Below, one piece after another: positions 1 to 11,829 of a stretch of DNA of 35,628 nucleotides. The DNA comes from a virus. The position numbers and the translations under genes were made by a program. Within the stretch, counting starts at the first letter, position 1; every line of letters begins with the position of its first letter. The stretch spans positions 1 to 35,628 of IMG/VR virus record IMGVR_UViG_3300044799_000183. The stretch is one strand, 5' to 3'. The notes under the pieces were generated by a model. It was given only the letters and a program-made list of their open reading frames with translations. It was not told the DNA's origin and ran no database searches.

Positions 1-29
1 TTATCCTCGTTTCAAAGGCGGCAAAATGA
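1..29 (+). CDS. C-terminal end of the 61-aa protein that starts at 35345 (partial)
   Basis: These are the last codons, ending in TGA at 27-29, of the short protein whose complete copy lies at 35345-35530. It appears here only because the circular genome is cut inside the gene. The stop overlaps the next start as ATGA (26-29). Confidence 0.8.
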
Positions 30-127
30 CCACTGAAACGCACCCTTGCCCGGCTCACGTTGCCCGAATGGAGACCTTATTGAAACGGTTTGAATGCCCT
101 CACAAGGCACTTACGCACGACACAACC
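1..127. repeat. Terminal direct repeat, left copy (circular overlap)
   Basis: Bases 1-127 are identical to 35502-35628. A 127-base exact overlap equals a common assembler k-mer length, so this is most simply the overlap of a circularly closed contig rather than a biological terminal repeat. Two genes span the join: the 61-residue protein ending at 29 (its start is at 35345) and the zinc-ribbon gene starting at 26. Confidence 0.93.
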
Positions 128-196
128 GATATTATCTGCGCTGACTGCGGGGCGCGGATAAGCGAATACGACGCTAAACATCAAACGAAAGGATAA
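26..196 (+). CDS. Small zinc-ribbon-like protein (56 aa)
   Basis: A 56-residue protein, starting ATG ACC ACT, that I cannot name. It carries Cys8/His11, then Cys24-Pro-His26 and a CADC pair (Cys38, Cys41), the pattern of a small treble-clef or zinc-ribbon fold that could bind DNA, RNA or a protein. Its start overlaps the upstream stop (ATGA), so it is translationally coupled. The stop lies inside the ribosome site of the following gene (AAAGGATAAAATG). A partial second copy starts at 35527 because of the circular overlap. Zinc binding is inferred from Cys spacing only. Confidence 0.7.
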   Translation: MTTETHPCPAHVARMETLLKRFECPHKALTHDTTDIICADCGARISEYDAKHQTKG

Positions 197-197
197 A

Positions 198-374
198 ATG
201 GATAAAAATTGCTTACTTTGCGGGGCTGGACTTGACTGCGAATTTGAAAATTTTAATCCCAAAACGGACTATCAATTTTGTCAAAGTTGTTTGGATTTTT
301 TGACAGAGATTGATTGCGATTTAATTCAAGCCGCAAAATCCGCAAGAAAATATTTTCCTTATAACGACAACTAA
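198..374 (+). CDS. Small cysteine-rich protein (58 aa)
   Basis: A 58-residue acidic protein with CLLC (Cys5, Cys8), Cys14 and CQSC (Cys28, Cys31): two CxxC knuckles about 20 residues apart, as in a single zinc ribbon. Function unknown. The ribosome site AAAGGA stands 6 bases before the ATG and overlaps the previous stop. It lies in a run of tiny early-type genes that continues from 34652 across the circle join. Such proteins in phages are often host-takeover factors, but nothing here proves that. Confidence 0.68.
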   Translation: MDKNCLLCGAGLDCEFENFNPKTDYQFCQSCLDFLTEIDCDLIQAAKSARKYFPYNDN

Positions 375-394
375 AAACAGATAGGAGAAAAGCG

Positions 395-553
395 ATGACA
401 AAACAAGAGAAGATAGACGCCGCGAAAGCAAATCTTGACCGCATAAAAGCGGACAGGCTCGGCAAACATATCGGCAAAGAAATGGATTACGAACTTCAAA
501 ACGCTTTCGCCGCTTACGTTGCCGCCCGCGGACTCCCTGAAGATAACTCTTAA
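395..553 (+). CDS. Small hypothetical protein (52 aa)
   Basis: A 52-residue, highly charged, probably all-helical protein (starts MTKQEKIDAAKANLDRIKAD). No motif is recognised. The start is supported by AGGAG upstream (383-387). It stands in the same direction and spacing as its neighbours, between a cysteine-rich protein and a small HTH-like protein. Only its coding status is claimed. Confidence 0.62.
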   Translation: MTKQEKIDAAKANLDRIKADRLGKHIGKEMDYELQNAFAAYVAARGLPEDNS

Positions 554-567
554 CCCTGAAAGGAAAA

Positions 568-888
568 ATGTTACGGTATATAAAAGAAAAAACAAAATTA
601 AGGCGCGGGCGTCCGTTTGGTTCTTGCACGCGGAAGGATTCAATAGAGGTCAAGGGATTTTTACACTTGCCCGGATTGACTCCGCGAGAATTGACGCAAG
701 CGATAGGATTCCCGAAAGAGAAAGCTACGATATTTTACGGGGCAAAAATGTCAACGCAATGCCGGAATAGAATTGAAATCTATATGCGTAACGGGGGCAT
801 AGAAGCCTTAAAATTACTCAACAAGGCTCGCAAGGCACACGACCGCGCAAGCGACGCGGTTAAAAAATTAAAAGAAAAGAAAGGCTAA
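568..888 (+). CDS. Small basic HTH-like protein (106 aa)
   Basis: A 106-residue basic protein. Residues about 37-62 (LTPRELTQAIGFPKEKATIF) read as a helix-turn-helix: a helix, a Gly-containing turn and a second helix. The C-terminal 40 residues are lysine-rich and helical. This suggests a DNA-binding regulator, but no family is recognised. The ATG is preceded by AAAGGA at a good distance. The stop is 1 base before the nuclease gene, so it belongs to the recombination operon and could regulate it. Confidence 0.65.
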   Translation: MLRYIKEKTKLRRGRPFGSCTRKDSIEVKGFLHLPGLTPRELTQAIGFPKEKATIFYGAKMSTQCRNRIEIYMRNGGIEALKLLNKARKAHDRASDAVKKLKEKKG

Positions 889-889
889 A

Positions 890-1984
890 ATGCCGGAGAA
901 AAACGAAATAAAACGAATGAAACTACGGGCTTCTCGAATACCGCTTTTTCTAAAATGCGCTTGTTCGATAGGTGAGCCGGAAATCGAAATACAGCAAGAA
1001 AGTGAGGCATCGCGGACAGGAACGTGCGTTCACGAAGTTCTTGCGGAATATATTAGGGACGGGATCGAGCCGGGAAATTTGACCGACGATGAACGGTTCC
1101 TTTTTTACGTCGGCAAAAAGATTTGGAACGAAAAACTTATCGCTTATTTTCCGACTCCGCAAATTGAAATACCGATGTCCTATACCGTTGACGAGGGCGG
1201 CTATCTGGATTTGACCGGAACTGCCGATGTCATTCAAATTGGATCGGACTTTGTGGCGGTATTGGATTGGAAAACAGGGCGCGTCGAAAGGGATTATACC
1301 CCGCAATTACAGGCTTATGGATTACTCGCCGCACTTATGTTTGACAAACCGAAAGCGATTGTAAGCATAGCAAACTTACGCACCGGCGAAATAACGACGC
1401 AAGAGTTCAAACTTTCGCAATTTACCGATTTTCATAATTCGCTAATCAAACAGTTAGATAGCGATATTTACAATGCCGGACAGCATTGCGAGTTTTGCCC
1501 GAATGCCTTGTATTGTCAAGCGCGGACGGCTCTAATTGAAAACGCGGTAAAAGACCTTTCGGGAATTGAGTTAAATATTTCCCGGCTTGCGTTTAACGAC
1601 AAACTTCATATCGTCTACGCCGCCCGAAAAATGCTTGCGGTAGCGATAGACAAATTCGACGAAGCCCTAAAATTTGAAATTGAAAAGCAGGGGAATTTAG
1701 ATTCCGGCGGGTTTATTTTTTCCCTTGAAACCCGAACCCGAAAGGAAATTGACGCGGAAAAAGCAACGCCACTTTTAACCGAAAAATTCTCCGCGAATGA
1801 AATACTGTCTTTTCTCAAAATCAATAAAACCGATCTTGAAAAGGCGGTTATGTCGAAAGTAGAAAAAGGCGAAAAAACAAATGCAGTCAAGGCGTTTATG
1901 GGTGAACTTGAAAACGCCGGAGCGATAAAAACGACCGAGAGCAAAGTCTTATCGGTCAAACCAATAAAGAAGGAGTTAGAATGA
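890..1984 (+). CDS. PD-(D/E)XK exonuclease, RecB/Cas4-like (DUF2800-type)
   Basis: A 364-residue nuclease. Residues about 109-130 carry the PD-(D/E)XK core: GTADVI, then VLDWKTG with the D..(D/E)xK acidic residues, followed by QLQAYGLLA, the QxxxY motif of the RecB/Cas4/AddB lineage. Cysteines near residue 23 and a C-x2-C-x5-C cluster near 201-210 match the four Cys that hold a 4Fe-4S cluster in Cas4 and AddB. It would resect double-stranded ends to give single strands for the annealase encoded immediately downstream, with which it overlaps by ATGA. This is the RecE/RecT-type arrangement. The family assignment is firm. Whether the cluster is loaded, and the polarity of resection, are inferred. 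Confidence 0.88.
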   Translation: MPEKNEIKRMKLRASRIPLFLKCACSIGEPEIEIQQESEASRTGTCVHEVLAEYIRDGIEPGNLTDDERFLFYVGKKIWNEKLIAYFPTPQIEIPMSYTVDEGGYLDLTGTADVIQIGSDFVAVLDWKTGRVERDYTPQLQAYGLLAALMFDKPKAIVSIANLRTGEITTQEFKLSQFTDFHNSLIKQLDSDIYNAGQHCEFCPNALYCQARTALIENAVKDLSGIELNISRLAFNDKLHIVYAARKMLAVAIDKFDEALKFEIEKQGNLDSGGFIFSLETRTRKEIDAEKATPLLTEKFSANEILSFLKINKTDLEKAVMSKVEKGEKTNAVKAFMGELENAGAIKTTESKVLSVKPIKKELE

Positions 1985-2808
1985 GCCAACAAGAGCAGGG
2001 ATTAGTCAAGGCGAATGCCGGACTTGTCGCAACGGTTTTACAAGCGAAGGTTGCAGAATCGTTTAAGGCGCGGTTTAACGGCGATAAGGAATATAAGGAC
2101 GCCTTTTATTCCGCGCTGGTAAATATCGCTAAAACAAACGACGCTATCGCAAAATGCGACATAACAAGCGTCCTCGTCGCGGCGGCGAATTGCGCACAGT
2201 TAGGGTTGCTCCCCATCGTAGGGCTTGACCACGCCTATATAGTGCCTTACGGGAGCGACGCAACGCTTATAATCGGATATAAGGGTTATATCGAACTTGC
2301 GCGTCGCTCTGGGCGAATTAAGGCGGTCAACGTCGAAATCATTTACGAACACGACGACTTCAATTTCACGGCGGGGTTAAATCCGATTTTAACTCATATT
2401 CCTTTTTGGTTGCGAAAACCCGCTAAAGAAGAAGCCGGTGCAATCAAAGGGGCTTATGTTGTTGTCGAATTTGACAACGGCTCACATCAATGCGACGTTT
2501 TCTCCTATGCCGAATTATTGAAAAGTAAAGAAGCGAGCAAGTCCGCAAAAAGTCCCTATTCCCCGTGGCAAAAATGGGAAATCGAAATGCTGAAAAAAAC
2601 CGCAATCCGAAAAGCAAGCAAGAGGTGGCCGCTTTCGATAATGATGGCAAAGGCGGAGCAACTCGACACCGACGCGGATTTAGGGCGCAAACAAGAAGCG
2701 GACATATCGGATATAATACCGGAAGCGTCTATGCCGTTGACGGGCAAGGCGAATAAACCCGCGCCGGAAGAACCGAAAGAGAAAAAAGAACTCGGATTTG
2801 ACGAATAA
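1981..2808 (+). CDS. recT: RecT-family single-strand annealing protein
   Basis: A 275-residue protein with the RecT signature throughout: an N-terminal helical region, the conserved block near residues 77-110 (VGLDHAYIVPYG followed by IGYKGYIELARRSG), and the downstream segment SPYSPW...EMLKKTAIRKASK. RecT binds single-stranded DNA made by its partner exonuclease and anneals complementary strands, promoting phage recombination and concatemer formation. The partner is the nuclease overlapping upstream by ATGA. The acidic, Pro/Glu/Lys-rich tail (about 240-275) resembles the flexible C-terminus through which annealases contact host SSB. That contact is inferred. Confidence 0.95.
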   Translation: MSQQEQGLVKANAGLVATVLQAKVAESFKARFNGDKEYKDAFYSALVNIAKTNDAIAKCDITSVLVAAANCAQLGLLPIVGLDHAYIVPYGSDATLIIGYKGYIELARRSGRIKAVNVEIIYEHDDFNFTAGLNPILTHIPFWLRKPAKEEAGAIKGAYVVVEFDNGSHQCDVFSYAELLKSKEASKSAKSPYSPWQKWEIEMLKKTAIRKASKRWPLSIMMAKAEQLDTDADLGRKQEADISDIIPEASMPLTGKANKPAPEEPKEKKELGFDE

Positions 2809-2835
2809 CCCTTAACCCACAATCGAAAGGAAAAA

Positions 2836-3216
2836 ATGATAGAAAAAGATAAAATTATAGAAATATTAAAAACCGCCGGTCTTGAGCCAATTATAGAAAC
2901 CGAAAAGGGTGAAACTTTAGCGGGTGCAGATAACGATGGTGAACTTGACGACGTTTCTGAAAGATTTAGGACAAGCCCAAGTGCCAACGCTCACCCGACT
3001 TTAAAGCCTTTTTCCCTAAACGCCCGAATCCTTAAACTTTTCAAAACGCCCAACCCGCAAACAATTTTCATTCCCTTTTCCGGCGCGGGTTCGGAAATAA
3101 TCGGAGCGATCCGAGCAGGTTTTACGGATTGGTTTGCTTGCGAAATTAACCCCGAATTTATAACGATTGCGGAAGCGAGAATAAAACGCGAAACGATGCA
3201 GGAAAATTTATTTTAA
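2836..3216 (+). CDS. DNA methyltransferase fragment (SAM-binding half, no catalytic motif)
   Basis: A 126-residue protein whose C-terminal two thirds match the second half of beta-class N4/N6 DNA methyltransferases: HPTLKP (motif X region, about 53-58), then PFSGAGSE (motif I, the AdoMet loop) and the acidic CEINPEF strand (motif II). The first half of such enzymes, which holds motif IV (DPPY/SPPY) and the target-recognition region, is absent. The N-terminal 35 residues are unrelated. Start and ribosome site (AAAGGA) are good, so the gene appears intact as a short protein. It may be a decayed remnant, an AdoMet-binding protein, or half of a split enzyme. Methylation activity is not expected from it alone. 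Confidence 0.75.
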   Translation: MIEKDKIIEILKTAGLEPIIETEKGETLAGADNDGELDDVSERFRTSPSANAHPTLKPFSLNARILKLFKTPNPQTIFIPFSGAGSEIIGAIRAGFTDWFACEINPEFITIAEARIKRETMQENLF

Positions 3217-3234
3217 ATTATTTTAAAATTCCCC

Positions 3235-3263
3235 TTGACAAAGGGAAAACCAATTCGTATAAT
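3235..3263 (+). promoter_or_regulatory. Consensus sigma70-type promoter
   Basis: TTGACA at 3235-3240 and TATAAT at 3258-3263 are both perfect, separated by 17 bases. Transcription should start near 3270, exactly where the 16-base inverted-repeat arm begins. It is the best promoter in the window and lies within an otherwise continuous operon, 18 bases after the methyltransferase-like stop. Confidence 0.88.
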
Positions 3264-3268
3264 GGGAT

Positions 3269-3380
3269 TAGGTATGAATTATGTTAGTTAAACTTAAAAA
3301 TAAAAACGTGGACTCCAAAGGCGAGGATTTTGTCTTTCGACATAATTCATACCTATCGCTTGCGGAGTCCGCTTTTTTTT
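3269..3380 (+). ncRNA. Structured RNA with pseudoknot-order pairing
   Basis: Two long complementary pairs interleave. Arm A (3269-3284) is perfectly complementary to A' (3340-3355), 16 bp. Arm B (3308-3316 plus 3319-3323) pairs with B' (3357-3361 plus 3364-3372), 14 bp including two G-U pairs and a 2x2 internal loop. The order A-B-A'-B' is that of a pseudoknot, and A' and B' are one base apart. B' is followed by eight T. With the promoter upstream this predicts an RNA of about 110 nt with a base-paired 5' end and a terminator 3' end, or a leader that attenuates the HNH gene whose AGGAG starts 3 bases after the T run. An open 37-codon frame (3281-3394) also crosses it. No known RNA family is claimed. 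Confidence 0.65.
3357..3380 (+). terminator. Intrinsic terminator arm of the structured RNA
   Basis: GGAGTCCGC (3364-3372) can pair with GTGGACTCC (3308-3316) and runs directly into T8 (3373-3380). It is also nearly self-complementary (GCGGA-G-TCCGC), giving a small local hairpin. The HNH ribosome site follows at once, so either readthrough is regulated or the RNA is a separate product. Confidence 0.6.
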
Positions 3381-3393
3381 ATAGGAGTGCCTA

Positions 3394-3930
3394 ATGCCTA
3401 TTTCAAACAAATTGCGGTTCGAGGTTTTTAAGCGCGACGGATTCCGCTGTGCCTATTGCGGAAAAACGCCGCCGGAGGTTGTCTTGGAATGCGATCATAT
3501 TGAGCCGGTTAAAGAGGGCGGTCAAGATGTTATGGAAAACCTTATAACCGCGTGTTTCGAGTGCAACCGGGGAAAGGGTTGTATTCCGCTTGAAAAAATT
3601 CCAACGCAAGTTCAAACCAACATCGAAATCCTTAAGGAAAAAGAAGCGCAGTTAAGGGAATATCGGAAATACGCCGCGAAACTTGAAAAGATGATCCAAA
3701 AGGATATTGATGAGGTGGTTGCCGTTTATTCAGAATGTTTTAAAGGTTGGACTTTAGAGGAACGTTTCAAACAATCTACTATTAAAACTTTTCTTAAATC
3801 CTTGTCGAAAGAAGAAATAAAAGAAGCTATGTATTTAGCGGCAAATAAGGTTCGTGATAATCACCGGACGATCCGATATTTTTGCGGTATTTGCTGGAAT
3901 AAAATTAAGGCGAAGGGTCAAAATGCCTAA
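3394..3930 (+). CDS. HNH endonuclease with C-terminal helical domain
   Basis: A 178-residue protein. The N-terminal 60 residues are a classical HNH nuclease: Cys19-x2-Cys22, the catalytic DH at 34-35, Asn49, and Cys54-x2-Cys57 followed by Asn58. The C-terminal half is a charged helical region (about 70-130) and a block ending in YFCGICWNKIK, seen in phage HNH proteins that sit next to replication genes. It could nick or cut DNA in replication or recombination, or be a free-standing homing nuclease. AGGAG lies 6 bases before the ATG. The stop is shared with the next gene's start through ATGCCTAA (3923-3930). Confidence 0.88.
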   Translation: MPISNKLRFEVFKRDGFRCAYCGKTPPEVVLECDHIEPVKEGGQDVMENLITACFECNRGKGCIPLEKIPTQVQTNIEILKEKEAQLREYRKYAAKLEKMIQKDIDEVVAVYSECFKGWTLEERFKQSTIKTFLKSLSKEEIKEAMYLAANKVRDNHRTIRYFCGICWNKIKAKGQNA

Positions 3931-4783
3931 ACGTTTCACCGCGTCGGAAAAATGGGACGATCCGTTCTTTACGGATTTATCGAAAGATTATAAGTTGGTT
4001 TGGATTTACATTTTAGATAAATGTAGCAATGCAGGAATTTACGATGTCAATATAAAAAATCTGAATTTTTCTACCGAAACGACACTTTCCGCGCAAGATA
4101 TTTTAACAACTTTCGGGGAACGAATTTTAGTCCTTAACTCTGGTAAAAAGTGGTTTATCCCTAAATTTGTCGTTTTTCAATACGGAAGTCTTCAAACTGA
4201 AAAAAATACTTTTCACAAGAAGATTAGCGAGGATTTACGCCAAAATGGGATAGAGTGTCGAGAGGGTGTCTACACCCTATTGGAAATTTCTAACACCCAT
4301 AAGGATAATAATAGGAATAATAATAGGAAATTAAAAGGGGATTCTCAAGGGGAAAATCCCGAACCCGTAAAATCTGAAATCCCAACCGATGAGGAAAAAA
4401 TTCTCGCTTATCTTAACCAAAAAACGAACCGAAATTATCGGGTAGGAACGGGAATAAAAAGCCGCCTTGAAACTTACTCTTTCGATGACCTAATTTTGGT
4501 TATTGATTTCAAGGTTTTCAGTTGGCTTAACGACGATACGATGTCCGAACACCTTTGCCCTAAAACTTTATTTCGGGAAAGCAATTTTGATAAATATTTA
4601 CCGGCGGCGCGGGAATGGGATAAACGCGGACGGCAAAATAAACCGCCCGTCTCGAAATTTGTCAAGCCGGAGCAACCGATAGACCGGCGTTTTGAAACGG
4701 ACGCGATTGAAATCGAAGAGAATAGGTTAAAAGATATACAGTGGGCAAAAGAACATCCTGACCGTGCTGGAGAAATTTTATGA
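3923..4783 (+). CDS. Phage replisome organiser (wHTH N-terminus, Phg_2220_C-type C-terminus)
   Basis: A 286-residue protein. Residues 1-90 (begins MPKRFTASEKWDDPFFTDLS) have the look of the winged-helix initiator domain of Firmicutes-type phage replication proteins. A low-complexity Asn-rich linker near 128-140 comes from a 12-base tandem repeat. Residues about 158-232 (EKILAYLNQKTNRNYR ... CPKTLFRESNFDKYL) match the conserved phage C-terminal domain PF09524. Such proteins bind the phage origin and bring in the helicase loader or the helicase. It overlaps the HNH gene by 8 bases and the DnaB gene by ATGA. I chose the ATG at 3923 rather than an earlier in-frame ATG at 3854, which lies deep in the HNH gene. 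AAGGGT precedes it. Confidence 0.83.
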   Translation: MPKRFTASEKWDDPFFTDLSKDYKLVWIYILDKCSNAGIYDVNIKNLNFSTETTLSAQDILTTFGERILVLNSGKKWFIPKFVVFQYGSLQTEKNTFHKKISEDLRQNGIECREGVYTLLEISNTHKDNNRNNNRKLKGDSQGENPEPVKSEIPTDEEKILAYLNQKTNRNYRVGTGIKSRLETYSFDDLILVIDFKVFSWLNDDTMSEHLCPKTLFRESNFDKYLPAAREWDKRGRQNKPPVSKFVKPEQPIDRRFETDAIEIEENRLKDIQWAKEHPDRAGEIL

Positions 4784-6162
4784 CCGATAAGCTACAAAAC
4801 GGCGAACTTGAAATACAGATTCTCGGTTGCGTAATGTTAGAGAATGACGCGCAACGAGAAGCGGTTGCCAGACTCACGCCGGAAGATTTCTATACTCCCC
4901 ACTTACGTAAGATATTTGAGAGCGTCCTTGCCCTAAATAAGCGCGGCATACAGGCAGATATAGTTACTCTCTATGAAAGCGGAGTAGCGGAAGCGTCGGC
5001 ATTGTCGGCAATGTTAAGTCAAGTATCGCTCACATCCGGGAATATCTTTTGGGGAATTGAAAAACTAAAATCTATGTCCACCGCCCGTCGTCTTTTGCGG
5101 GAACTTGGGAATTATAGCGATGCGATAACGAACGGGGAAATTTCGCCGGAACTCATTGAAAAATATAATAAGATAATCCGCGAAACGACTGAAGGGATAA
5201 ACCGAGAAATTGACGAAATGGATTTTGGGGAATTAGTCGCTGAAGGTTTGAACGACGCCCTCGACGGCAAGCCCCGCCTTCCCGGCGTAAAAATTGGAAT
5301 ACCGAGTTTCGATGGGATAACATACGGATTAATGCAGGATGATTTTATCGTAATTGCAGGGCGTCCGGGAACGGGCAAGACCGCGCTTATGTTACAAGCC
5401 GCGATGTATTCGACGCGGCACGACGGAAAAAAGTGCGCGGTTGTGTCTATCGAAATGGGTCAAAAACAACTTTGCGACAGGGGAATAGCAAGCGGCGCGG
5501 AGATCGAACATACAGCAGTAAGAACCGGACGGATCGGCTCTACCGAAATGCAAAAACTTGTTAAGTGGTCGGAGACGTTGACCGGTTGGCAAAAGGATAT
5601 GAGATTTTATCTTTCGGGGCACGAAACGACAGATTCGATTTACGCGAAAATCGAAAAGCAAAAATCCAAAATGGGTTGCGATATAGCGTTTATTGATTAT
5701 TTACAACTCATCGAGGGCGACAAATCGAAAAGCCGGTTTGACCAAGTTTCGCAAATTTCAAGGGATTTGAAGGCATTCGCGAAAGACTTAAAAATTCCCA
5801 TTGTGGCTCTGGCGCAATTAAACCGGAAGGCAACGGAGAGAAAATTCGGGCGTCCTTGCAAGGAAGATTTAGGGGAAAGTGGACATATCGAACAGGACGC
5901 CTCGATAATTGGTTTGCTCTGGCGACCGAGTGAATACGGGGCAAAACCGACGGACACAGTAGTTTTTCAAGGGCGGGATATTGCGACAAACGATATGACT
6001 TGTTTGATAATAGATAAAAATCGGAACGCCCCCAAAATAGATATTTGGTGCGATTTTGACGGACGGAAGCAGAAATTTACGGAGATAGTTTTCGAGGACG
6101 AAAGCCGACACCCTTTTGTAGACAATAAAACCAAAGCGGCAGGAGGAAATAATGATAATTGA
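4780..6162 (+). CDS. dnaB: DnaB-type replicative DNA helicase
   Basis: A 460-residue protein with the full DnaB layout. The N-terminal helical domain begins ELEIQILGCVMLENDA and includes TPEDFYTPHLRKIFE. It is followed by a linker helix and the RecA-like ATPase with Walker A GRPGTGKT (about 194-201), the SIEMG strand, Walker B with FIDYLQL (about 303-309), and the downstream segments LAQLNR and DLGESGHIEQDA. It unwinds DNA 5' to 3' ahead of the replisome. The length is normal. It overlaps the organiser gene (ATGA), consistent with co-expression of loader and helicase. No primase gene is recognised in the window, so host primase is presumably used. Confidence 0.96.
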   Translation: MTDKLQNGELEIQILGCVMLENDAQREAVARLTPEDFYTPHLRKIFESVLALNKRGIQADIVTLYESGVAEASALSAMLSQVSLTSGNIFWGIEKLKSMSTARRLLRELGNYSDAITNGEISPELIEKYNKIIRETTEGINREIDEMDFGELVAEGLNDALDGKPRLPGVKIGIPSFDGITYGLMQDDFIVIAGRPGTGKTALMLQAAMYSTRHDGKKCAVVSIEMGQKQLCDRGIASGAEIEHTAVRTGRIGSTEMQKLVKWSETLTGWQKDMRFYLSGHETTDSIYAKIEKQKSKMGCDIAFIDYLQLIEGDKSKSRFDQVSQISRDLKAFAKDLKIPIVALAQLNRKATERKFGRPCKEDLGESGHIEQDASIIGLLWRPSEYGAKPTDTVVFQGRDIATNDMTCLIIDKNRNAPKIDIWCDFDGRKQKFTEIVFEDESRHPFVDNKTKAAGGNNDN

Positions 6163-6364
6163 CACTGACGAATTAGCGGAAAATGTTATTGCGGCGTATA
6201 TGAATAAAATAGACGATGTTAGTAAAGCAAGCCAAGAGGATGGGAGTGATCCATATTTTGCGATTAAAACGCTAATCGGAACGCAAAACATAATTTTGAG
6301 TGATATTGACAATATAGAAGATCTTGCAGAAAGATATTTGCCAAAAGGCAATGATGACCGATAA
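6152..6364 (+). CDS. Small acidic hypothetical protein (70 aa)
   Basis: A 70-residue acidic helical protein (starts MIIDTDELAENVIAAYMNKI) of unknown function. It overlaps the end of the helicase gene by 11 bases and has AGGAGG just upstream, so it is the last member of the replication operon. No cysteine pairs, signal peptide or known motif is visible. Confidence 0.65.
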   Translation: MIIDTDELAENVIAAYMNKIDDVSKASQEDGSDPYFAIKTLIGTQNIILSDIDNIEDLAERYLPKGNDDR

Positions 6365-6416
6365 AGAGAAGATAGCGAAACTTGAAAGACACAACTGCAA
6401 TCTAATAAACAATTAG
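6354..6416 (+). CDS. Possible 20-aa peptide
   Basis: ATG at 6354 overlaps the end of the 70-residue gene in another frame and runs for 20 codons (MTDKEKIAKLERHNCNLINN) to TAG. It is coupled by position but has no ribosome site of its own. The first part reads like a short coiled-coil start, so it may be a decayed gene rather than a working peptide. Confidence 0.3.
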   Translation: MTDKEKIAKLERHNCNLINN

Positions 6417-6426
6417 AAGGAGAGAA

Positions 6427-6939
6427 ATGAAGGACACAAAAACGAAGCTGAAACCCGAAAAGCTGTATTGTGAGAAGCGGGTATTAAGGGACGGAGAAAA
6501 TGAATCGGCGGCGTTAATGCTATGCGAAACGCCCTTAAAAAACATCGAAATACGGACGGAAATAGAGGGGAATCGAGGCATACAAACGGCAACTATTTGG
6601 ATGCGTCCCGACTCCCTTATTCCGTTAGCGGAAATGATAAGGGATTATTTGCAAACCAAAACCAAACCAACGAACCGAAAGGATAAAATGAGCGAGAACT
6701 CAAATAAACTCGAAGGTTGCGGGAATTGCAAATACGCAAACGATGATGTGCATAGTCAAATTTGTCATATTTGTAGGGATTATGACCATTGGGTAGGGGT
6801 TAAAAATTGGGAAAAAATAAATCCTGAAACGACCGCCTTGACCGACTTACTCCGGCGGTTATCGGAAATGGACAATCGAGCGAGTCAACGAGGGACAGCT
6901 TCAGCGATTCGCGGGCAAGGGTGGACTATTCGGAGATGA
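6427..6939 (+). CDS. Two-part protein: hypothetical N-terminus joined to a Cys-rich domain (170 aa)
   Basis: The first 87 residues are an unrecognised small domain. From Met88 the protein looks like a separate gene: GCGNCKYAND, then CHICRDYDHW, a four-Cys cluster typical of small phage zinc proteins. Met88 (6688) has the same ribosome-site context, GAAAGGATAAAATG, that starts other genes here. In those cases the TAA inside it ends the upstream frame; here the frame misses it, giving one fused product plus a probable internal start. The last 25 residues (after about 6865) look non-native and are overlapped by a better-looking +1 frame (6842-7030). The AAGGAG before 6427 is good. Confidence 0.6.
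   Translation: MKDTKTKLKPEKLYCEKRVLRDGENESAALMLCETPLKNIEIRTEIEGNRGIQTATIWMRPDSLIPLAEMIRDYLQTKTKPTNRKDKMSENSNKLEGCGNCKYANDDVHSQICHICRDYDHWVGVKNWEKINPETTALTDLLRRLSEMDNRASQRGTASAIRGQGWTIRR
6679..6690 (+). promoter_or_regulatory. Internal ribosome site and start for the Cys-rich domain
   Basis: AAAGGATAAA followed by ATG (6688-6690) matches the start context at 189-200. It would yield an 83-residue product (6688-6939) beginning MSENSNKLEGCGNC. The same ATG is in frame with the longer gene, so both forms may be made. Confidence 0.5.
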
Positions 6940-7030
6940 AGAGATTTGGGAAACAATACCGACGCCGGAGGAGAAGGATTTCTTCGCGGTGCTCGGAATG
7001 AAATACATAGAACCAAAAGAAAGGAAGTAA
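6842..7030 (+). pseudogene. C-terminal remnant of a family X DNA polymerase-like protein (no start codon)
   Basis: An open +1 frame of 62 codons lies between TGA (6839-6841) and TAA (7028-7030). It ends in a segment with KGGLFGDEE, then EEKDFFAVLGMKYIEPKER, resembling the extreme C-terminus of Pol X enzymes (family pattern iF..LGl.Y.eP.eR). There is no ATG, GTG or TTG in the frame, but its stop lies 1 base before the next gene, the spacing of a real gene. It is either the tail of a deleted polymerase or is expressed from the upstream Cys-rich gene by a +1 shift. The frame-0 text over the same bases (SAIRGQGWTIRR) looks non-native. The family call rests on a short motif. Confidence 0.45.
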
Positions 7031-7031
7031 A

Positions 7032-7319
7032 ATGCCAGAACGTCGTCAAATAGACATCGAGGCGGAATTCGCATTGATCGAGGCGAAGAAGAGCACGTTG
7101 TCCTCGAGTGAACGGGCGCAGGTAGTAGAATTGATGCGTATTCGCAACGGAGGCAAGCGCGTCGGCGCAATCGCTGTCGCTGAACTTATTCTCGCGGAGT
7201 TCAAGGAGAAATGTCCGTGGGAACGAATATTCACGCACACCGGCGAATTGTTCGCGGATTTATTGGAGAAGCGAATCGCGGAGTTAAAGGGCGAAAAGAA
7301 AGAGGAGAAGCCGTTATGA
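7032..7319 (+). CDS. Small charged hypothetical protein (95 aa)
   Basis: A 95-residue helical protein rich in Glu, Lys and Arg, with a Lys/Glu tail. The middle (SSSERAQVVELMRIRNGGKR...AVAELILAEF) suggests a helix-turn-helix-like bundle, but I do not recognise a family. The start is supported by AAAGGA upstream. It overlaps the next gene as ATGA at 7316-7319. Confidence 0.65.
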   Translation: MPERRQIDIEAEFALIEAKKSTLSSSERAQVVELMRIRNGGKRVGAIAVAELILAEFKEKCPWERIFTHTGELFADLLEKRIAELKGEKKEEKPL

Positions 7320-7540
7320 ACGATGACTTTTCTGTCCAACACTTAGAACGTAAAAACGATGCGACGACAGACTGCTCAAAAGGAAAAGGGCGTTGGGGGT
7401 ATCCAGAAATTTGGGTTGAAAAAATCATCTTGAAGAAAGTAACAGAGGAAGAAGCGATGAAATATTTTCAAAAACTTAAGTTAGGTCGCAAGTGGCGCTT
7501 AATTCATAGGCACAGTTTAATAACGGTGGTGGAGCAATGA
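7316..7540 (+). CDS. Small hypothetical protein (74 aa)
   Basis: A 74-residue protein (MNDDFSVQHLERKND...) ending KWRLIHRHSLITVVEQ. The WGYPEIWVEKI...EEEAMKYFQKLKLGRKWRLIHR segment predicts a beta-alpha-beta mini-domain. Function unknown. I chose this ATG, not an earlier in-frame one at 7211, because it overlaps the upstream stop and has AGGAG before it. Confidence 0.6.
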   Translation: MNDDFSVQHLERKNDATTDCSKGKGRWGYPEIWVEKIILKKVTEEEAMKYFQKLKLGRKWRLIHRHSLITVVEQ

Positions 7541-7608
7541 TCGCCTTCACTATTCTCGGCGAGCCGTTTGAAATTGACACTATAAACGGGGAAATAAAAA
7601 TTTTATAA
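7537..7608 (+). CDS. Possible 23-aa peptide
   Basis: ATG at 7537 overlaps the upstream stop (ATGA) and encodes a 23-residue peptide, MIAFTILGEPFEIDTINGEI plus KIL. It fills what would otherwise be the only gap between adjacent genes. It relies on translational coupling, though GGTGGAG lies just upstream. Coding status is plausible but unproven. Confidence 0.4.
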   Translation: MIAFTILGEPFEIDTINGEIKIL

Positions 7609-7618
7609 AGGAGTCCTA

Positions 7619-7984
7619 ATGCTAACTTACGACGATATAACCGTGCTTTCCGGCGACGCCTTGAACGAGGCGGTTGCGAGAGCGGATGGGTGGGAATATA
7701 GCGAAACGCACGGATGGCATAAGAAGAAAAATTTGAGTAAAAAAACTCCGATAAACATACGCAAACGCCTTCCCGACTACCGTTCCGGCGACCTTGTGGA
7801 CGGGCTGGCAAGGGAAGTTATGTTTGGCGAAATATCTATTGGCGAACAAACTGAAATTTTTATGGGAGACCGGACTGAAATTTTTATGGGAGATACAGAA
7901 ATTAGTTTCAAAAGTCCTTCCCTCACGACCGCGATCCTTCGGGCGTGGTTATGGTGGGCGCAAAACCAGAAAGGAAAAGAATGA
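7619..7984 (+). CDS. Phage ABA-sandwich-domain protein with a duplicated segment
   Basis: A 121-residue protein with the N-terminal LSGDALNEAVARADGWEY and the C-terminal FKSPSLTTAILRAWLWWAQ that mark the small phage ABA-sandwich domain family, of unknown function. Between them a 20-base sequence is repeated with a 24-base period (7850-7869 and 7874-7893), duplicating TEIFMGD. This lengthens the central loop. The ribosome site AAAGGAG lies before the ATG. The gene overlaps the next one by ATGA. Confidence 0.75.
   Translation: MLTYDDITVLSGDALNEAVARADGWEYSETHGWHKKKNLSKKTPINIRKRLPDYRSGDLVDGLAREVMFGEISIGEQTEIFMGDRTEIFMGDTEISFKSPSLTTAILRAWLWWAQNQKGKE
7850..7893 (+). repeat. 24-bp-period tandem duplication inside the ABA-sandwich gene
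   Basis: ACTGAAATTTTTATGGGAGA occurs at 7850-7869 and again at 7874-7893. It keeps the frame and duplicates the peptide TEIFMGD. A third, partial copy (TEI) follows, which suggests recent slippage. Confidence 0.85.
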
Positions 7985-8121
7985 GTATGTGGCGCAAGAA
8001 AACTGAATCGGAAAAGTATGATGAAGAATGCGGCAAACGTCTAATGGAAATTCAGCGCGAAGCAAACAAGGAATTATCCGATATATCTAAGCCGACGTGG
8101 AGCGAGAAAGGAAAAGAATGA
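7981..8121 (+). CDS. Small charged hypothetical protein (46 aa)
   Basis: A 46-residue helical, highly charged protein (MSMWRKKTESEKYDEECGKR...). AAAGGA stands before the ATG, which overlaps the upstream stop, and the downstream gene again overlaps by ATGA. No motif is recognised. Its support is coding position and ribosome site. Confidence 0.55.
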   Translation: MSMWRKKTESEKYDEECGKRLMEIQREANKELSDISKPTWSEKGKE

Positions 8122-8300
8122 AAACAATCGAGCAACTTGAGCGCGCCCTTGCTATTGAAAAGCGGGCGTTGGAATTAGCGTGCGAAGAATTAGAAGCAAC
8201 AGAATATTGCACACTCGAAGAACCTTGTCCTTATATAACAACTTGCACGCCTTGCCTAACAACCTATTTCCGCGAGCAGGCGGAGAAAGAGATGAAATGA
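8118..8300 (+). CDS. Small Cys-containing helical protein (60 aa)
   Basis: Sixty residues: a coiled-coil-like N-terminus (MKTIEQLERALAIEKRALEL) followed by a cluster of cysteines (Cys21, Cys31, Cys37, Cys43, Cys46) in TLEEPCPYITTCTPC. It may bind a metal. It is coupled to both neighbours by ATGA overlaps and has AAAGGA 7 bases upstream. The in-frame ATG at 8097 would overlap the previous gene more and has no ribosome site. Confidence 0.6.
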   Translation: MKTIEQLERALAIEKRALELACEELEATEYCTLEEPCPYITTCTPCLTTYFREQAEKEMK

Positions 8301-8452
8301 TTTATTATTGGGTGTCTTGTTTTACGCTAATTGTGGTTTTATGCACAGTAGCGGTTTGTATGTGCCTAAAACGCATAGCCGAAGCGTTGGAGAATTTAAT
8401 TATTTCGGGGAATCTAAACATAAATTTACCAAAAGAAAAGGACTCCGAATGA
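8297..8452 (+). CDS. Small single-pass membrane protein (51 aa)
   Basis: Fifty-one residues. MIYYWVSCFTLIVVLCTVAV is one hydrophobic span, followed by a basic, then amphipathic tail of about 28 residues expected in the cytoplasm. Function unknown; tiny membrane proteins of phages often alter the host envelope. It overlaps both neighbouring genes by ATGA. Confidence 0.6.
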   Translation: MIYYWVSCFTLIVVLCTVAVCMCLKRIAEALENLIISGNLNINLPKEKDSE

Positions 8453-9267
8453 CGAAAATATCTTGGGTTCGTAACGCGGACGGAACGCAAGGGGAATCGT
8501 GGAATCCGGTTACGGGTTGCACACAAATAAGCGAGGGTTGCGACCATTGTTGGGCGCGTGCGATGAATAAGCGGTTTGGCGGCGGGGACTTCTCGGTCAA
8601 ACTGCATCCTGAACGGCTCGATATTCCGTTGCGCCGGAAAAAGCCGACGACGTATTTCGTTTGCTCGATGAGCGACCTATTCCACAAGGACGTGCCAGAC
8701 GATTATGTAAAACAGCTTTTATTCACAATGGATGCCTGTTACGAATTAGGGCATTTGTTTTTGATATTAACGAAACGACCGGAAAGAATGAAGAATATAA
8801 TTAACTCAATGCAATGGTGGTTAAAAGATATTCCAAAGAACATCTGGCTCGGCGTAACGTGCGAGAACCAAGCGAGAGCGGATGAACGTATTCCGCTATT
8901 GCTCGCAACTCCCGCCGCGAAAATGTTTGTAAGTATCGAACCGATGCTGGGGAAAATTGATTTACGAAACATTTCTTATGGCACATATAAACTTGATGCC
9001 CTTGTGCGCGAATATGGGAATGAAGAAACAAAAATATCGTGTTCTTTCGGTATGGCAAATTTAGCAAAACTCGATTGGGTAATCTGCGGTTGCGAGAGCG
9101 GCGCGGGACGGCGACCGATGAATATTGATTGGGTTCGTAGTTTGCGCGACCAATGCGTTCAGGCAAATACCGCCTTCTTCCTGAAACAGATAGAAATTGA
9201 CGGAAAAGTCGTGCATATGCCGGAACTTGACGGGAAAAAATATGCGCAACTGCCGGAGGTAAAATGA
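8449..9267 (+). CDS. DUF5131 (phage Gp37/Gp68) family protein
   Basis: A 272-residue member of the Gp37/Gp68 family: WNPVTGCTQISEGCDHCWA near the start places Cys24-x6-Cys31-x2-Cys34, an Fe-S-type trio, followed by the family blocks VCSMSDLFH, LILTKRPERM, WLGVTCENQ, VSIEPMLG and WVICGCESG. The fold is related to radical-SAM-like barrels, with a predicted 4Fe-4S cluster. The substrate is unknown. It overlaps a small membrane protein gene upstream and a PD-(D/E)XK nuclease downstream. The start at 8449, not 8308, is fixed by the family's N-terminal motif. Confidence 0.9.
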   Translation: MTKISWVRNADGTQGESWNPVTGCTQISEGCDHCWARAMNKRFGGGDFSVKLHPERLDIPLRRKKPTTYFVCSMSDLFHKDVPDDYVKQLLFTMDACYELGHLFLILTKRPERMKNIINSMQWWLKDIPKNIWLGVTCENQARADERIPLLLATPAAKMFVSIEPMLGKIDLRNISYGTYKLDALVREYGNEETKISCSFGMANLAKLDWVICGCESGAGRRPMNIDWVRSLRDQCVQANTAFFLKQIEIDGKVVHMPELDGKKYAQLPEVK

Positions 9268-9686
9268 AAAAGTTAAAAAACGGCGACACTATATCTTATT
9301 TACCGCCCTATCGGAATGAGAGCGAGTTTGAAGGGGCGTTTGCAACCAGCGCGGGGCTTCTCGGATGCCGTTATTTCAAAATCCCTGACGCTATTGTTTT
9401 CAAGGGGCAAAAACAGATAACAGAACACCGCCGTCCTTTCGATGGTATTCTTTCGACTCCGACGGGGAATATCGCAATAGAGCTAAAATACGCTTACAAT
9501 GCCCTTGAACTGCATCAATGGGGCAACTTGAAGATTATATCAAACCTGAACGGCAAGGCGTTTGTATGCCGCTTCAAACCCCTTAAAACGCATTCCGAGC
9601 TGACAATCGAAAGTCCCGACGGGAAAGTTTTATTTTTAACGACAAACCTTGAAAAACTAATCGAATATCTGAAGGAGACGAAATGA
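9264..9686 (+). CDS. Small PD-(D/E)XK nuclease-like protein
   Basis: A 140-residue protein with Glu23 in a helix (SEFEGAF), then RPFDG (Asp60) and NIAIELKYA (Glu73, Lys75): the E...D-x12-ExK layout of PD-(D/E)XK nucleases of the resolvase/VRR-NUC size class. It ends in a strand-helix tail. It may resolve branched replication intermediates or act as a restriction-like nuclease; the exact family is not recognised. It overlaps DUF5131 upstream and a membrane protein downstream, both by ATGA. Confidence 0.72.
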   Translation: MKKLKNGDTISYLPPYRNESEFEGAFATSAGLLGCRYFKIPDAIVFKGQKQITEHRRPFDGILSTPTGNIAIELKYAYNALELHQWGNLKIISNLNGKAFVCRFKPLKTHSELTIESPDGKVLFLTTNLEKLIEYLKETK

Positions 9687-9841
9687 ACTTCGTAAAATTT
9701 TTCGCAATCTTTATGTGTTGCGTATGTATTCTCTGGAGTATTTATTTATTTGTTAGCGACTCAAACCCAGCTAACTTATTGGTTATGGCTTGCGCGGGTT
9801 GGTTGACATCCTTAATTCATTGCATAAAAACAGAAAACTAA
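9683..9841 (+). CDS. Small two-span membrane protein (52 aa)
   Basis: Fifty-two residues with two hydrophobic spans: FVKFFAIFMCCVCILWSIYLF and NLLVMACAGWLTSLIHC, joined by a short polar turn. It is most likely a hairpin inner-membrane protein. Function unknown. It is coupled to the upstream nuclease gene by ATGA with AAGGAG before the start. Confidence 0.6.
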   Translation: MNFVKFFAIFMCCVCILWSIYLFVSDSNPANLLVMACAGWLTSLIHCIKTEN

Positions 9842-9844
9842 ATA

Positions 9845-10036
9845 ATGCTATTGCGTTACGAAAAAACCGACCGCGTATGTATTTCGCCGTGTCCTCACGG
9901 GTTTGTGAAATACGGTGAACCGATATTTATAGGCTCGAATTTATGCTATACTTGCGTTCATTGGCGCGGTCAAGACAAGAAAAAACAAACTGTAGAATGC
10001 GATTTCAAACCTAAAACGAAAGGGAAAAATGAGTAA
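9845..10036 (+). CDS. Small Cys-rich protein (63 aa)
   Basis: Sixty-three residues with CISPCPH, CYTC and a final CDF: five Cys and one His spaced like a single zinc-binding knuckle, then a lysine-rich tail. Function unknown. The start is 4 bases after the upstream stop with a weak ribosome site. The 8-base overlap with the next gene supports it. Confidence 0.6.
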   Translation: MLLRYEKTDRVCISPCPHGFVKYGEPIFIGSNLCYTCVHWRGQDKKKQTVECDFKPKTKGKNE

Positions 10037-10229
10037 GAAAGAGGTAGTCGAAAAGTGCGAATTTTATTTTACGTTTCAATATGCCGACCCGCCTTCTGAA
10101 CCTGACGGGGATGCTACGCTTTATACGGAAGAAAAATGTAAAAAATTAGGGCGTTGCGTAACTTGCGGCGGAGAAAAAGAGTGTTGCGATATTGACTTTG
10201 CTTTTACAGACTACCATGATAAGGAGTAA
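10029..10229 (+). CDS. Small acidic Cys-rich protein (66 aa)
   Basis: Sixty-six residues, acidic, with Cys10, Cys37, CVTC, and a CC pair near the end (GRCVTCGGEKECC). This could hold zinc or an Fe-S cluster. Not recognised. It starts within the tail of the previous gene, with AAAGGG before its ATG. The stop is followed by the HNH gene's start 3 bases later. Confidence 0.6.
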   Translation: MSKKEVVEKCEFYFTFQYADPPSEPDGDATLYTEEKCKKLGRCVTCGGEKECCDIDFAFTDYHDKE

Positions 10230-10231
10230 AA

Positions 10232-10520
10232 ATGCCAACCGATTATAACCGACTCCGCGCTTTTTTTGACGCCGTAATGGAACGAGACGGCGGGGTATGT
10301 CAATATCCTTTCGGGGATTCGATTTGCGGGAGCGAATGCGTGGGTGAAAGCCATCACGTCTACGGGAAAATAACCGGCGATAAGGACGCGGAAAGACGGC
10401 GGGATATGGTTATGTCTACAACACCATCGGACGGCAACGAACCACGCTAAATCTTTTCGTTCGTGGTTTGAAAGCACCTATCCCGAACGAGCGGCGAAAA
10501 TAAAAGGAGCGAGAAAGTGA
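10232..10520 (+). pseudogene. HNH endonuclease interrupted by a +1 frameshift
   Basis: Frame 0 from ATG 10232 encodes VMERDGGVCQYPF...CGSECVGESHHVYGKI, the N-terminal half of a phage HNH nuclease, then drifts into unrelated residues and stops at 10448-10450. The +1 frame (open from 10374) supplies the missing half: DGGIWLCLQHHRTATNHAKS and FRSWFESTYPER, ending TGA at 10518-10520, which overlaps the GTG start of the next gene as expected for the ancestral stop. One extra base, around 10385-10402 in a GC-rich run, explains it. It is a mutation, a sequencing error, or a translational +1 shift. As read, the ATG gives only a 72-residue truncated product lacking the second histidine segment. Confidence 0.7.
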
Positions 10521-10945
10521 ATTTCGCTGACAAAGAATACCGCAAGCCGCCTTTCCCCGCTTCTTTTTTTCTTAAACCAACAAAAGGAATATGTCGTTGG
10601 TGCGGGAAACCTGTGAATGAAAAACGACGAACTTTTTGGCACGGAGCCTGTAAAAAGGAATTTTACGCGGTATATTTCCCCAGCGATTTAGAAATTAGAA
10701 ATAAATATAATGGGCGTTGTGCGGTTTGTGGTAAATCTCAAAAAGAAACCCTATCGCCACACGAATACGATCATATCATACCCTTAAAAGACGCGCCGAA
10801 AGAATTGAAATATTGGACTAATGAGAATAGGCAATTTATTTGCCACAAATGCCACGTCGAAAAGTCCCGCCTTGAAAACATAGAGAGAAACAAAAGGAAG
10901 CGCGGGCAAGGCGTGTTGGAATTTAACGAAAAGGAAGCAAAATGA
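10517..10945 (+). CDS. HNH endonuclease with N-terminal zinc finger
   Basis: A 142-residue protein starting with GTG, preceded by AAAGGAG. An N-terminal knuckle (CRWC at 26-29, His42, Cys45) is followed by a standard HNH unit: CAVC (68-71), catalytic DH at 85-86, Asn102 and CHKCH (109-113). The basic tail may contact DNA. This type is common next to phage packaging genes and can serve as a packaging-associated or homing nuclease. Here it is in the accessory block and immediately follows the frameshifted HNH gene, with a GTGA overlap. Confidence 0.86.
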   Translation: MNFADKEYRKPPFPASFFLKPTKGICRWCGKPVNEKRRTFWHGACKKEFYAVYFPSDLEIRNKYNGRCAVCGKSQKETLSPHEYDHIIPLKDAPKELKYWTNENRQFICHKCHVEKSRLENIERNKRKRGQGVLEFNEKEAK

Positions 10946-11037
10946 AACCAAAACCAAAGTGTCCCCTTGCGCCTTTATCGGAGCATAAGGAAAAGATAAA
11001 CATAAAAAAACGACCGAAACAAACGGAGGAAAAATGA
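10942..11037 (+). CDS. Possible 31-aa basic peptide
   Basis: A 31-residue Lys/Pro-rich peptide beginning MKPKPKCPLAPLSEHK, bounded on both sides by ATGA overlaps and preceded by AAGGAAG. It fills an otherwise empty 90-base gap. Too short to assign; coding status is moderately supported by the tight coupling. Confidence 0.4.
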   Translation: MKPKPKCPLAPLSEHKEKINIKKRPKQTEEK

Positions 11038-11531
11038 CAGCACCCGAAACCATAAAAGCTTTTTTCGAGGCGTGGAAAGCGCGTAACTATTCCGCAATGT
11101 TTGCCCTCTGCAATGAGACGTGGAAGGATAATCACCAGCTCCCTGCGGGAAAGCATTTTATCGAAAACAATTTCCGCCCGTTCCTGCTCGATGAATACGA
11201 AATCGGAGAAGGCGAAACCGTCCGGGAATTTAAGGGCGTCGAGGACATCGCAAATTATTTTCCGCAAAACAAAGTCGGGCGGGACATCGCGGAAAAATAC
11301 ATAAAAAAACTCGGCGCTACCGAGGGCGTCGTAATGATGTCTTTCGACGTAGACTTTCAATTCCGGTTACGGTCGAGCGACAAGAAGATGTCGGCAACGG
11401 AGAAGATTGTTTTGTGCTTTACTCGCGCAAAAATCGGATTCGATCCGACGGGAACGCCCGGCGTCGAGGTGAGTTCTTTCCGAAATATCTGGCAATCAAT
11501 AGCGAAGAACCCCGCGAAAAAAGGCGAATAA
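11034..11531 (+). CDS. NTF2/SnoaL-like fold protein
   Basis: A 165-residue protein whose N-terminus (ETIKAFFEAWKARNYSAM, then ALCNETW) has the pattern of NTF2-like/SnoaL-like domains: an opening helix with FxxAW...Y..M..L. These cone-shaped domains act as small-molecule pockets or as protein partners. No catalytic residue can be assigned. It is the last gene of the accessory block, overlapping the peptide upstream (ATGA, with GGAGG). A promoter follows its stop, so it ends a transcription unit. Confidence 0.55.
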   Translation: MTAPETIKAFFEAWKARNYSAMFALCNETWKDNHQLPAGKHFIENNFRPFLLDEYEIGEGETVREFKGVEDIANYFPQNKVGRDIAEKYIKKLGATEGVVMMSFDVDFQFRLRSSDKKMSATEKIVLCFTRAKIGFDPTGTPGVEVSSFRNIWQSIAKNPAKKGE

Positions 11532-11540
11532 AAAAAGACC

Positions 11541-11568
11541 TTGACAGGATAAAAAACGCGATTATATT
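11541..11568 (+). promoter_or_regulatory. Promoter placed for a leaderless transcript
   Basis: TTGACA (11541-11546), 16 bases, then TATATT (11563-11568). The expected start of transcription, 7 bases after the -10 box, is 11575, the A of the next gene's ATG. There is no AGGAG-like site between. It begins the packaging and head module. Confidence 0.72.
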
Positions 11569-11574
11569 TAGTTT

Positions 11575-11826
11575 ATGACAGACGAAAAACTTAATAATTC
11601 CTTTGGCGACGGCGGTCATTCCGCGCCCCCTTGTGTTGGTAAAGAAAGCCCCTATTTTGACTACAAAGTGGGGGCTGATTTTTTGCACCGGGTAATCGTA
11701 ATAACCGCGCCGAACGGGGAGCCGATAACGGGCGTGCCGGAGCAACTGTGTCCGGTTTTTGCGACGCTTTTGATGCAAGGTTGGCTCAAACTTCAAACCA
11801 ACAAGAGCGCGATAATCGCGCCGTAA
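11575..11826 (+). CDS. Hypothetical protein, probably leaderless (83 aa)
   Basis: An 83-residue protein (MTDEKLNNSFGDGGHSAPPC...) with a C-terminal segment VITAPNGEPITGVPEQLCPV that looks like a small beta domain. Not recognised. Its start coincides with the predicted transcription start and it has no ribosome site, unlike nearly every other gene here. Being first in the packaging operon, it could be a small early-late regulator, but that is inference. Its last codons contain a perfect 6-bp hairpin (11807-11821). Confidence 0.62.
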   Translation: MTDEKLNNSFGDGGHSAPPCVGKESPYFDYKVGADFLHRVIVITAPNGEPITGVPEQLCPVFATLLMQGWLKLQTNKSAIIAP

Positions 11827-11829
11827 AAT

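What the first reader, a model, noticed from the sequence alone, without database searches (positions are those of the whole stretch)
3235..3393. Consensus promoter driving a pseudoknot-order RNA with its own terminator, immediately before an HNH gene
A perfect TTGACA-17-TATAAT promoter starts transcription at the first base of a 16-bp stem arm (3269-3284 with 3340-3355). A second 14-bp pairing (3308-3323 with 3357-3372) interleaves with it and runs into T8. The 5' end is base-paired and the 3' end is a terminator, the profile of a stable small RNA of about 110 nt. Alternatively it is an attenuator of the HNH gene, whose ribosome site follows the T run. No other promoter here is this strong, and it lies inside an otherwise continuous replication operon. 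Possible roles: RNA partner of the HNH protein, antisense or decoy RNA, or a timing switch for replication.
Basis: partly seen in the sequence, partly recalled or inferred. Interest (0 to 1): 0.8.

Follow-up and report, generated by a model that had tools for sequence, protein, structure and literature searches.

The report
Pseudoknot leader RNA before phage replication genes
A small knotted RNA with its own promoter and stop signal sits in front of the DNA-replication genes of this phage and of many unrelated phages; its shape is kept while its letters change completely, which points to a previously uncatalogued RNA control element of phage replication.

Summary
At 3235-3380 a perfect TTGACA-17-TATAAT promoter is followed by two interleaved helices, S1 (3269-3284 with 3340-3355) and S2 (3308-3324 with 3356-3372), and T8. 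Nothing in Rfam 15 matches. The same layout recurs directly upstream of about 27 divergent relatives of the HNH gene, with unrelated stem sequences, so pairing is kept by compensatory change. With a terminator required, 18/171 HNH-upstream regions score >=50, against 1/10,260 shuffles and 4/5,130 other windows. Most carriers fall in one HNH clade. Host-type promoters (sigma70, or Bacteroidota TAnnTTTG) abut the 5' arm.

The element is not tied to the HNH protein. It also heads replication modules that lack this gene, including the cultured phages Cellulophaga Nekkels_1 and phi19:1 and Polaribacter Danklef_1. It is not the Rfam skipping-rope RNA, whose genuine members have another topology. Best reading: a promoter-proximal pseudoknot leader with a built-in terminator that attenuates the replication operon and releases a stable RNA of about 110 nt. 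It would work like phage P4 CI RNA or Gifsy-1 IsrK; no homology to them is claimed. Whether the short RNA also acts in trans is open.

The parts
3235..3263 (+). sigma70-type promoter TTGACA-17-TATAAT
   Evidence: 12/12 match, the strongest of 17 sites in 1-12000; promoters at the same place relative to S1a in relatives
3269..3284 (+). S1 5' arm; begins 5 nt after the -10 box, at the expected transcription start
   Evidence: 16/16 Watson-Crick with 3340-3355; duplex -20.3 kcal/mol
3285..3307 (+). L1, A-rich single-stranded loop (23 nt; median 25 nt in relatives)
3308..3324 (+). S2 5' arm
   Evidence: 15 pairs with 3356-3372, duplex -24.6 kcal/mol
3325..3339 (+). L2 loop between S2a and S1b (15 nt)
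3340..3355 (+). S1 3' arm
3356..3372 (+). S2 3' arm, abuts S1b (L3 = 0); the terminator stem
3373..3380 (+). U8 tract of the intrinsic terminator; U-rich tails follow S2b in nearly all relatives
3281..3394 (+). optional leader ORF of 37 codons through the whole element; stop overlaps the HNH start (TAATG)
   Evidence: no evident amino-acid conservation; frames ending at the HNH start in 8/31 elements against 1.6 expected
3394..3930 (+). HNH endonuclease gene (178 aa; HNH domain plus C-terminal helical domain with conserved YFCGICW), first gene after the terminator
   Evidence: Pfam HNH 8e-13; alignment of 27 relatives; AlphaFold pLDDT 88.9
3923..4783 (+). replication initiation protein gene (Phg_2220_C; PHROG 428)
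4780..6162 (+). DnaB-like replicative helicase gene

Best explanation
The element is the leader of the phage replication module. RNA polymerase starts at S1a. S1 can form as soon as S1b is made, and S2 then closes across it into a pseudoknot whose second helix is the terminator stem, so most transcripts should end at the U run as a stable RNA of about 110 nt with both ends base-paired. A regulated or leaky fraction reads through into HNH, replication initiator and DnaB helicase. The structure therefore attenuates the replication operon in cis and makes its expression depend on whatever disturbs S1/S2 during transcription (a phage or host protein, a ribosome on a leader frame in some phages, or the short RNA itself). 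Shown here: the layout, its conservation by compensatory change, the promoter motif at the 5' arm, the U-run, and the position at the head of replication modules with or without HNH. Inferred: that it is transcribed, that both helices coexist, that termination is regulated, and what regulates it.
For: 18 of 171 HNH-upstream regions hold a strong pseudoknot plus U-run against 1/10,260 shuffles and 4/5,130 other windows. In a scan of 1.26 Mb, both strands, 18 of 23 hits lie within 80 nt upstream of the HNH start. 27 of 32 carriers fall in one supported clade of 40 HNH proteins, and two more members there are carriers by eye (sequences). Over 33 curated elements, own arms pair 97-99%, while arms swapped between loci pair at 58%, with >=90% in 2 of 1056 (S1) and 21 of 1056 (S2) swaps. 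Promoters of the expected host type lie 5-21 nt before S1a. The order element, HNH, replication protein, DnaB or other replication gene recurs. The element also precedes replication genes lacking HNH: L284 score 57.2 against a shuffle maximum of 41.9, Nekkels_1 59.6 against 39.6, Danklef_1 44.6 against 39.9, phi19:1 42.3. Between phi19:1 and Nekkels_1 the promoter is identical, but the element and the gene after it are both different, so the element changes together with the downstream module.
Against: No transcript data. In the window the HNH gene has its own ribosome site after the T run and upstream genes run the same way, so the downstream genes could be expressed without this promoter. 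S1 and S2 do not share bases, so no classical two-state switch is built in. For several members the best nested fold is about as stable as both helices together. L266 lacks a U-run. phi19:1 is only modestly significant.
Confidence: 0.5

Rival explanations
1. A stand-alone trans-acting phage small RNA. The terminator simply ends it, and the downstream genes are served by read-through from upstream early promoters.
For: Very strong promoter, base-paired 5' end, terminator 3' end; a similar pseudoknot plus U-run lies elsewhere, behind a repressor-like gene, in L063; upstream genes are mostly co-directional.
Against: No conserved sequence for a common target; no complementarity to the rest of the phage beyond chance (13 nt, 7 of 60 shuffles as long); persistent position within about 40 nt of a replication-operon gene over great divergence.
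Confidence: 0.27
2. An RNA partner or autoregulatory operator of the HNH protein (the protein binds the pseudoknot, or is guided by it).
For: In the main HNH clade the element is usually immediately upstream of HNH.
Against: The same element precedes replication genes without this HNH; over half of the HNH relatives lack it; structure search finds only a small HNH-nickase-like domain and no known RNA-binding fold for the C-terminal part.
Confidence: 0.12
3. A translated leader: a 36-48 codon frame overlapping the element is translated and coupled to HNH, and the pairing is secondary.
For: Frames beginning near S1a and ending at -6 to +1 of the HNH start in window, L002, L003, L005, L007, L105 and L211, with a short 15-codon case in L198; 8 observed against 1.6 expected.
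Against: Peptides show no evident similarity; the frame is absent or broken in L010, L014, L024, L074, L214 and L241 although the pseudoknot is intact.
Confidence: 0.08
4. A DNA-level feature of the replication origin (inverted repeats as initiator or nicking sites) rather than an RNA.
For: It lies at the head of the replication module beside a nuclease gene.
Against: Conserved promoter upstream and U-run downstream on one strand only; no shared sequence motif for an initiator.
Confidence: 0.03

Closest known systems
Phage P4 CI RNA and the leader of its replication operon
   Same: A leader region of a replication operon gives a small stable RNA, and premature transcription termination controls replication genes (described in PMC4825925).
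   Different: P4 CI is a processed antisense RNA pairing with seqA/seqC; here the pairing is within one transcript in pseudoknot order, with its own terminator; no sequence relation was tested.
Gifsy-1 IsrK RNA (Salmonella prophage)
   Same: Promoter, short terminated RNA, read-through mRNA, and a small ORF translationally coupled to the next gene (PMC4825925).
   Different: IsrK controls an antirepressor/antQ circuit; trans activation was demonstrated there and is unknown here.
Phage T4/T2 gene 32 pseudoknot
   Same: A phage mRNA pseudoknot upstream of a replication gene with coaxially stacked helices (PMC3014915).
   Different: An operator about 67 nt upstream of the start codon, for translational autorepression by the gene's own product, not part of a terminator.
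skipping-rope RNA (Rfam RF02924)
   Same: A pseudoknotted RNA family of bacteria and phages with covariation support (PMC7779021; PMC8501573).
   Different: Genuine members (L252-L263) have an outer closing stem and recurring nucleotides; the window and 50 related records give no hit over the cut-off.

Membership tests
skipping-rope RNA (RF02924) | score over the Rfam gathering cut-off (36.7 bits) | tested here: not met
   no match in the window at E<=10; no record over cut-off among 50 HNH-bearing records; positive control 26 of 398 Bacillota genomes
skipping-rope RNA (RF02924) | outer stem closing the whole RNA with recurring nucleotides inside | tested here: not met
   seen in genuine members; in the window S1 and S2 interleave and nothing encloses them
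any Rfam 15 family | gathering-threshold match | tested here: not met
   0 in the window, 0 in 15 loci, 0 in 18 more loci including cultured phages; the weak E-value hits are chance level
P4 CI-type replication-operon attenuation | leader RNA directly upstream of replication genes with a termination signal | tested here: met
   (sequence-level only)
P4 CI-type replication-operon attenuation | small RNA that pairs in trans with complementary segments of the leader | tested here: inconclusive
   complementary arms exist only within the element; no other complementary site above chance; trans action not testable here
IsrK-like dual RNA | short terminated form plus read-through mRNA | not testable with these tools
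   needs RNA-seq or northern blots
T4 gene 32-type pseudoknot operator | binding by the product of the downstream gene | not testable with these tools
   needs a binding assay; occurrence without HNH argues against HNH as the general ligand

The most novel reading that the evidence does not exclude
A widespread class of phage RNA defined by topology alone (promoter at the 5' arm, interleaved S1/S2, S2 as terminator stem), with no conserved sequence and so missed by sequence and covariance searches, that sets the onset or amount of phage replication and whose free form acts in trans on like leaders, giving each phage its own RNA-based replication control or superinfection specificity.
Probability: 0.2. 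Interest if true: 0.85.

Novelty: new variant of a known kind. Interest (0 to 1): 0.62.

Why it matters
It adds a recurring, experimentally reachable RNA element at the control point of phage DNA replication, present in cultured phages (Cellulophaga, Polaribacter) as well as uncultivated ones, and absent from Rfam. It also shows a kind of RNA family that standard searches miss because only the pairing topology is kept. If the leader sets replication timing it would be a simple control part and a test case for pseudoknot-based termination.

Tried and rejected
Skipping-rope membership: considered first because it is a pseudoknot RNA of phages and bacteria; rejected by score and by topology after fetching genuine members. 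HNH as obligatory partner: rejected as the general explanation after finding HNH-less modules with the element. Hypervariable core between conserved flanks (phi19:1 against Nekkels_1): looked like diversifying selection, but the downstream gene differs too, so it is a module exchange with its junction near the promoter. Antisense targets within the phage: none above chance. Eight HNH relatives from named phages (Synechococcus, Komagataeibacter, Oenococcus, Escherichia, Pseudomonas, Blautia, Vibrio, Propionibacterium) have no significant element. Arctus_1, morran9-1 and Pan5 have none with a terminator either. DNA similarity to phage records: none. The search from the window's replication protein found only four viral loci. 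RF02924 in 34 genomes carrying HNH: none.

Full report
WHAT IS THERE. The window is a 35.6-kb tailed-phage contig: exonuclease, RecT, a methyltransferase fragment, the element, HNH, a replication initiation protein, DnaB, then terminase, portal, head and tail genes. It has a 12/12 sigma70-type promoter, a perfect 16-bp S1 (3269-3284 with 3340-3355), S2 (3308-3324 with 3356-3372, 15 pairs) and T8. S1b and S2b touch without a gap. Its folding energy beats all of 200 shuffles, the interleaved pair beats all shuffles, and it is the only such element on either strand of the window.

CONSERVATION BY TOPOLOGY. There is no DNA relative in the phage records, so I collected relatives of the downstream HNH protein from viral contigs and bacterial genomes. 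A finder for interleaved stems was run on the region upstream of each HNH start. Requiring a U-run and plausible loop lengths, 18 of 171 regions score >=50, against 1 of 10,260 dinucleotide shuffles and 4 of 5,130 other windows of the same loci. In a scan of all loci on both strands, 18 of 23 hits lie within 80 nt upstream of HNH, and another (L222) lies 235 nt upstream with a small ORF between. The stems share no sequence. In 33 curated elements the own arms pair 97-99%, while arms swapped between loci pair 58% on average; swaps reach 90% in 2 of 1056 cases for S1 and 21 of 1056 for S2. That is the signature of pairing kept while sequence changes. Median sizes are S1 8 bp, L1 25 nt, S2 12 nt, L2 15 nt, L3 6 nt, total 97 nt, over the 29 elements located by the script. 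The curated list was assembled partly by eye and chosen for pairing, so the unbiased statistics are those.

PROMOTERS. In sigma70-type loci (window, L002, L003, L005, L009) the -10 box ends a few nt before S1a or before the transcript start expected from it. In Bacteroidota-type loci the promoter motif TAnnTTTG lies 5-21 nt before S1a. Two host promoter types at the same place argue that the transcript starts at or very near S1a.

EVOLUTION AND CONTEXT. In a tree of 94 HNH proteins, 27 of 32 carriers lie in one clade of 40 (support 98/82; 15 label changes against 26.8 in shuffles). Two further members of that clade, L019 and L033, are carriers by eye (sequences), and L004/L174 cannot be judged because the contig ends. 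The order element, HNH, about 250-aa replication protein, DnaB or another replication gene recurs while the upstream genes vary. The element is not bound to HNH: replication-protein relatives without HNH carry it in L284 (57.2 against a shuffle maximum of 41.9), in L266 without a U-run, and by eye in L283 and L285. Among cultured phages, Cellulophaga Nekkels_1 (59.6 against 39.6) and Polaribacter Danklef_1 (44.6 against 39.9) are clear, and phi19:1/phi10:1 are weaker. Between phi19:1 and Nekkels_1 the promoter is identical but the element and the gene after it both differ, so the element changes together with the replication module.

LEADER FRAME. The window's 37-codon frame (3281-3394) ends in TAATG with the HNH start. 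Frames that start in the first 50 nt of the element and end at the HNH start occur in 8 of 31 elements against 1.6 expected from shuffles, mainly in the window's nearest relatives (window, L002, L003, L005, L007), plus L105, L211 and a short one in L198. The peptides show no evident similarity and many intact elements have no such frame. The frame may be an added ribosome-based control in one lineage; it is not what is conserved.

MECHANISM. S2 is the terminator stem and S1 is made first, so the expected products are a terminated RNA of about 110 nt and a read-through mRNA for the replication genes. By helix and loop length the pseudoknot is sterically possible in most members (my estimate). 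Energies do not decide between a coexisting pseudoknot and alternation of S1 and S2: the best nested fold keeps only one of the two helices, and the sum of both exceeds it by about 0.5 to 18 kcal/mol before loop penalties, except in L013 where the nested fold is better. Known systems that work in a similar way are the P4 CI RNA/replication-operon leader and the Gifsy-1 IsrK RNA (PMC4825925) and, as a phage mRNA pseudoknot, T4 gene 32 (PMC3014915). No homology to these is claimed.

NOT SKIPPING-ROPE, NOT IN RFAM. RF02924 was tested directly: no hit in the window or, over the cut-off, in 50 records. A positive control found 26 of 398 Bacillota genomes over the cut-off, whose elements have an outer closing stem and recurring nucleotides. 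Rfam gathering scans of the window and 33 other loci gave nothing.

LIMITS. No transcript evidence exists here. Host assignments are mostly unknown. The finder favours strong stems and misses weaker or bulged ones, so the true number of carriers is probably higher than the automatic count.

Noticed in passing
2836-3216: A 126-aa ORF matches only the C-terminal part of N6/N4 DNA methyltransferases (Pfam profile positions 155-220 of 221); the N-terminal catalytic part is missing here, so it may be a remnant or a split gene.
   Followed up: no
11541-11568: A second near-consensus promoter (TTGACA-16-TATATT, 11/12) right before an 83-aa ORF (11575-11826) and a second HNH gene (11830-12714); a terminator-like hairpin at 11647-11676 lies inside the ORF and there is no pseudoknot layout.
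   Followed up: partly
10517-10945: A third HNH endonuclease-like gene in the same phage.
   Followed up: no
L063 3555-3662 (minus strand): A strong interleaved stem pair plus U-run (score 71.9) just behind a repressor-like gene and not before HNH; possibly the same kind of RNA in another place.
   Followed up: partly
L236 100-221 (minus strand): Another interleaved stem pair with U-run (score 60.3) away from HNH, context not examined.
   Followed up: no
L252-L263, element at about 1501-1585: Skipping-rope RNAs (RF02924) pass the cut-off in 26 of 398 sampled Bacillota genomes, sometimes several per genome.
   Followed up: no
L014, L015, L019, L026, directly upstream of HNH: The HNH start codon follows the U-run with almost no room; the best Shine-Dalgarno-like bases lie inside the 3' arm of S2, so translation of HNH would compete with the terminator stem.
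   Followed up: partly
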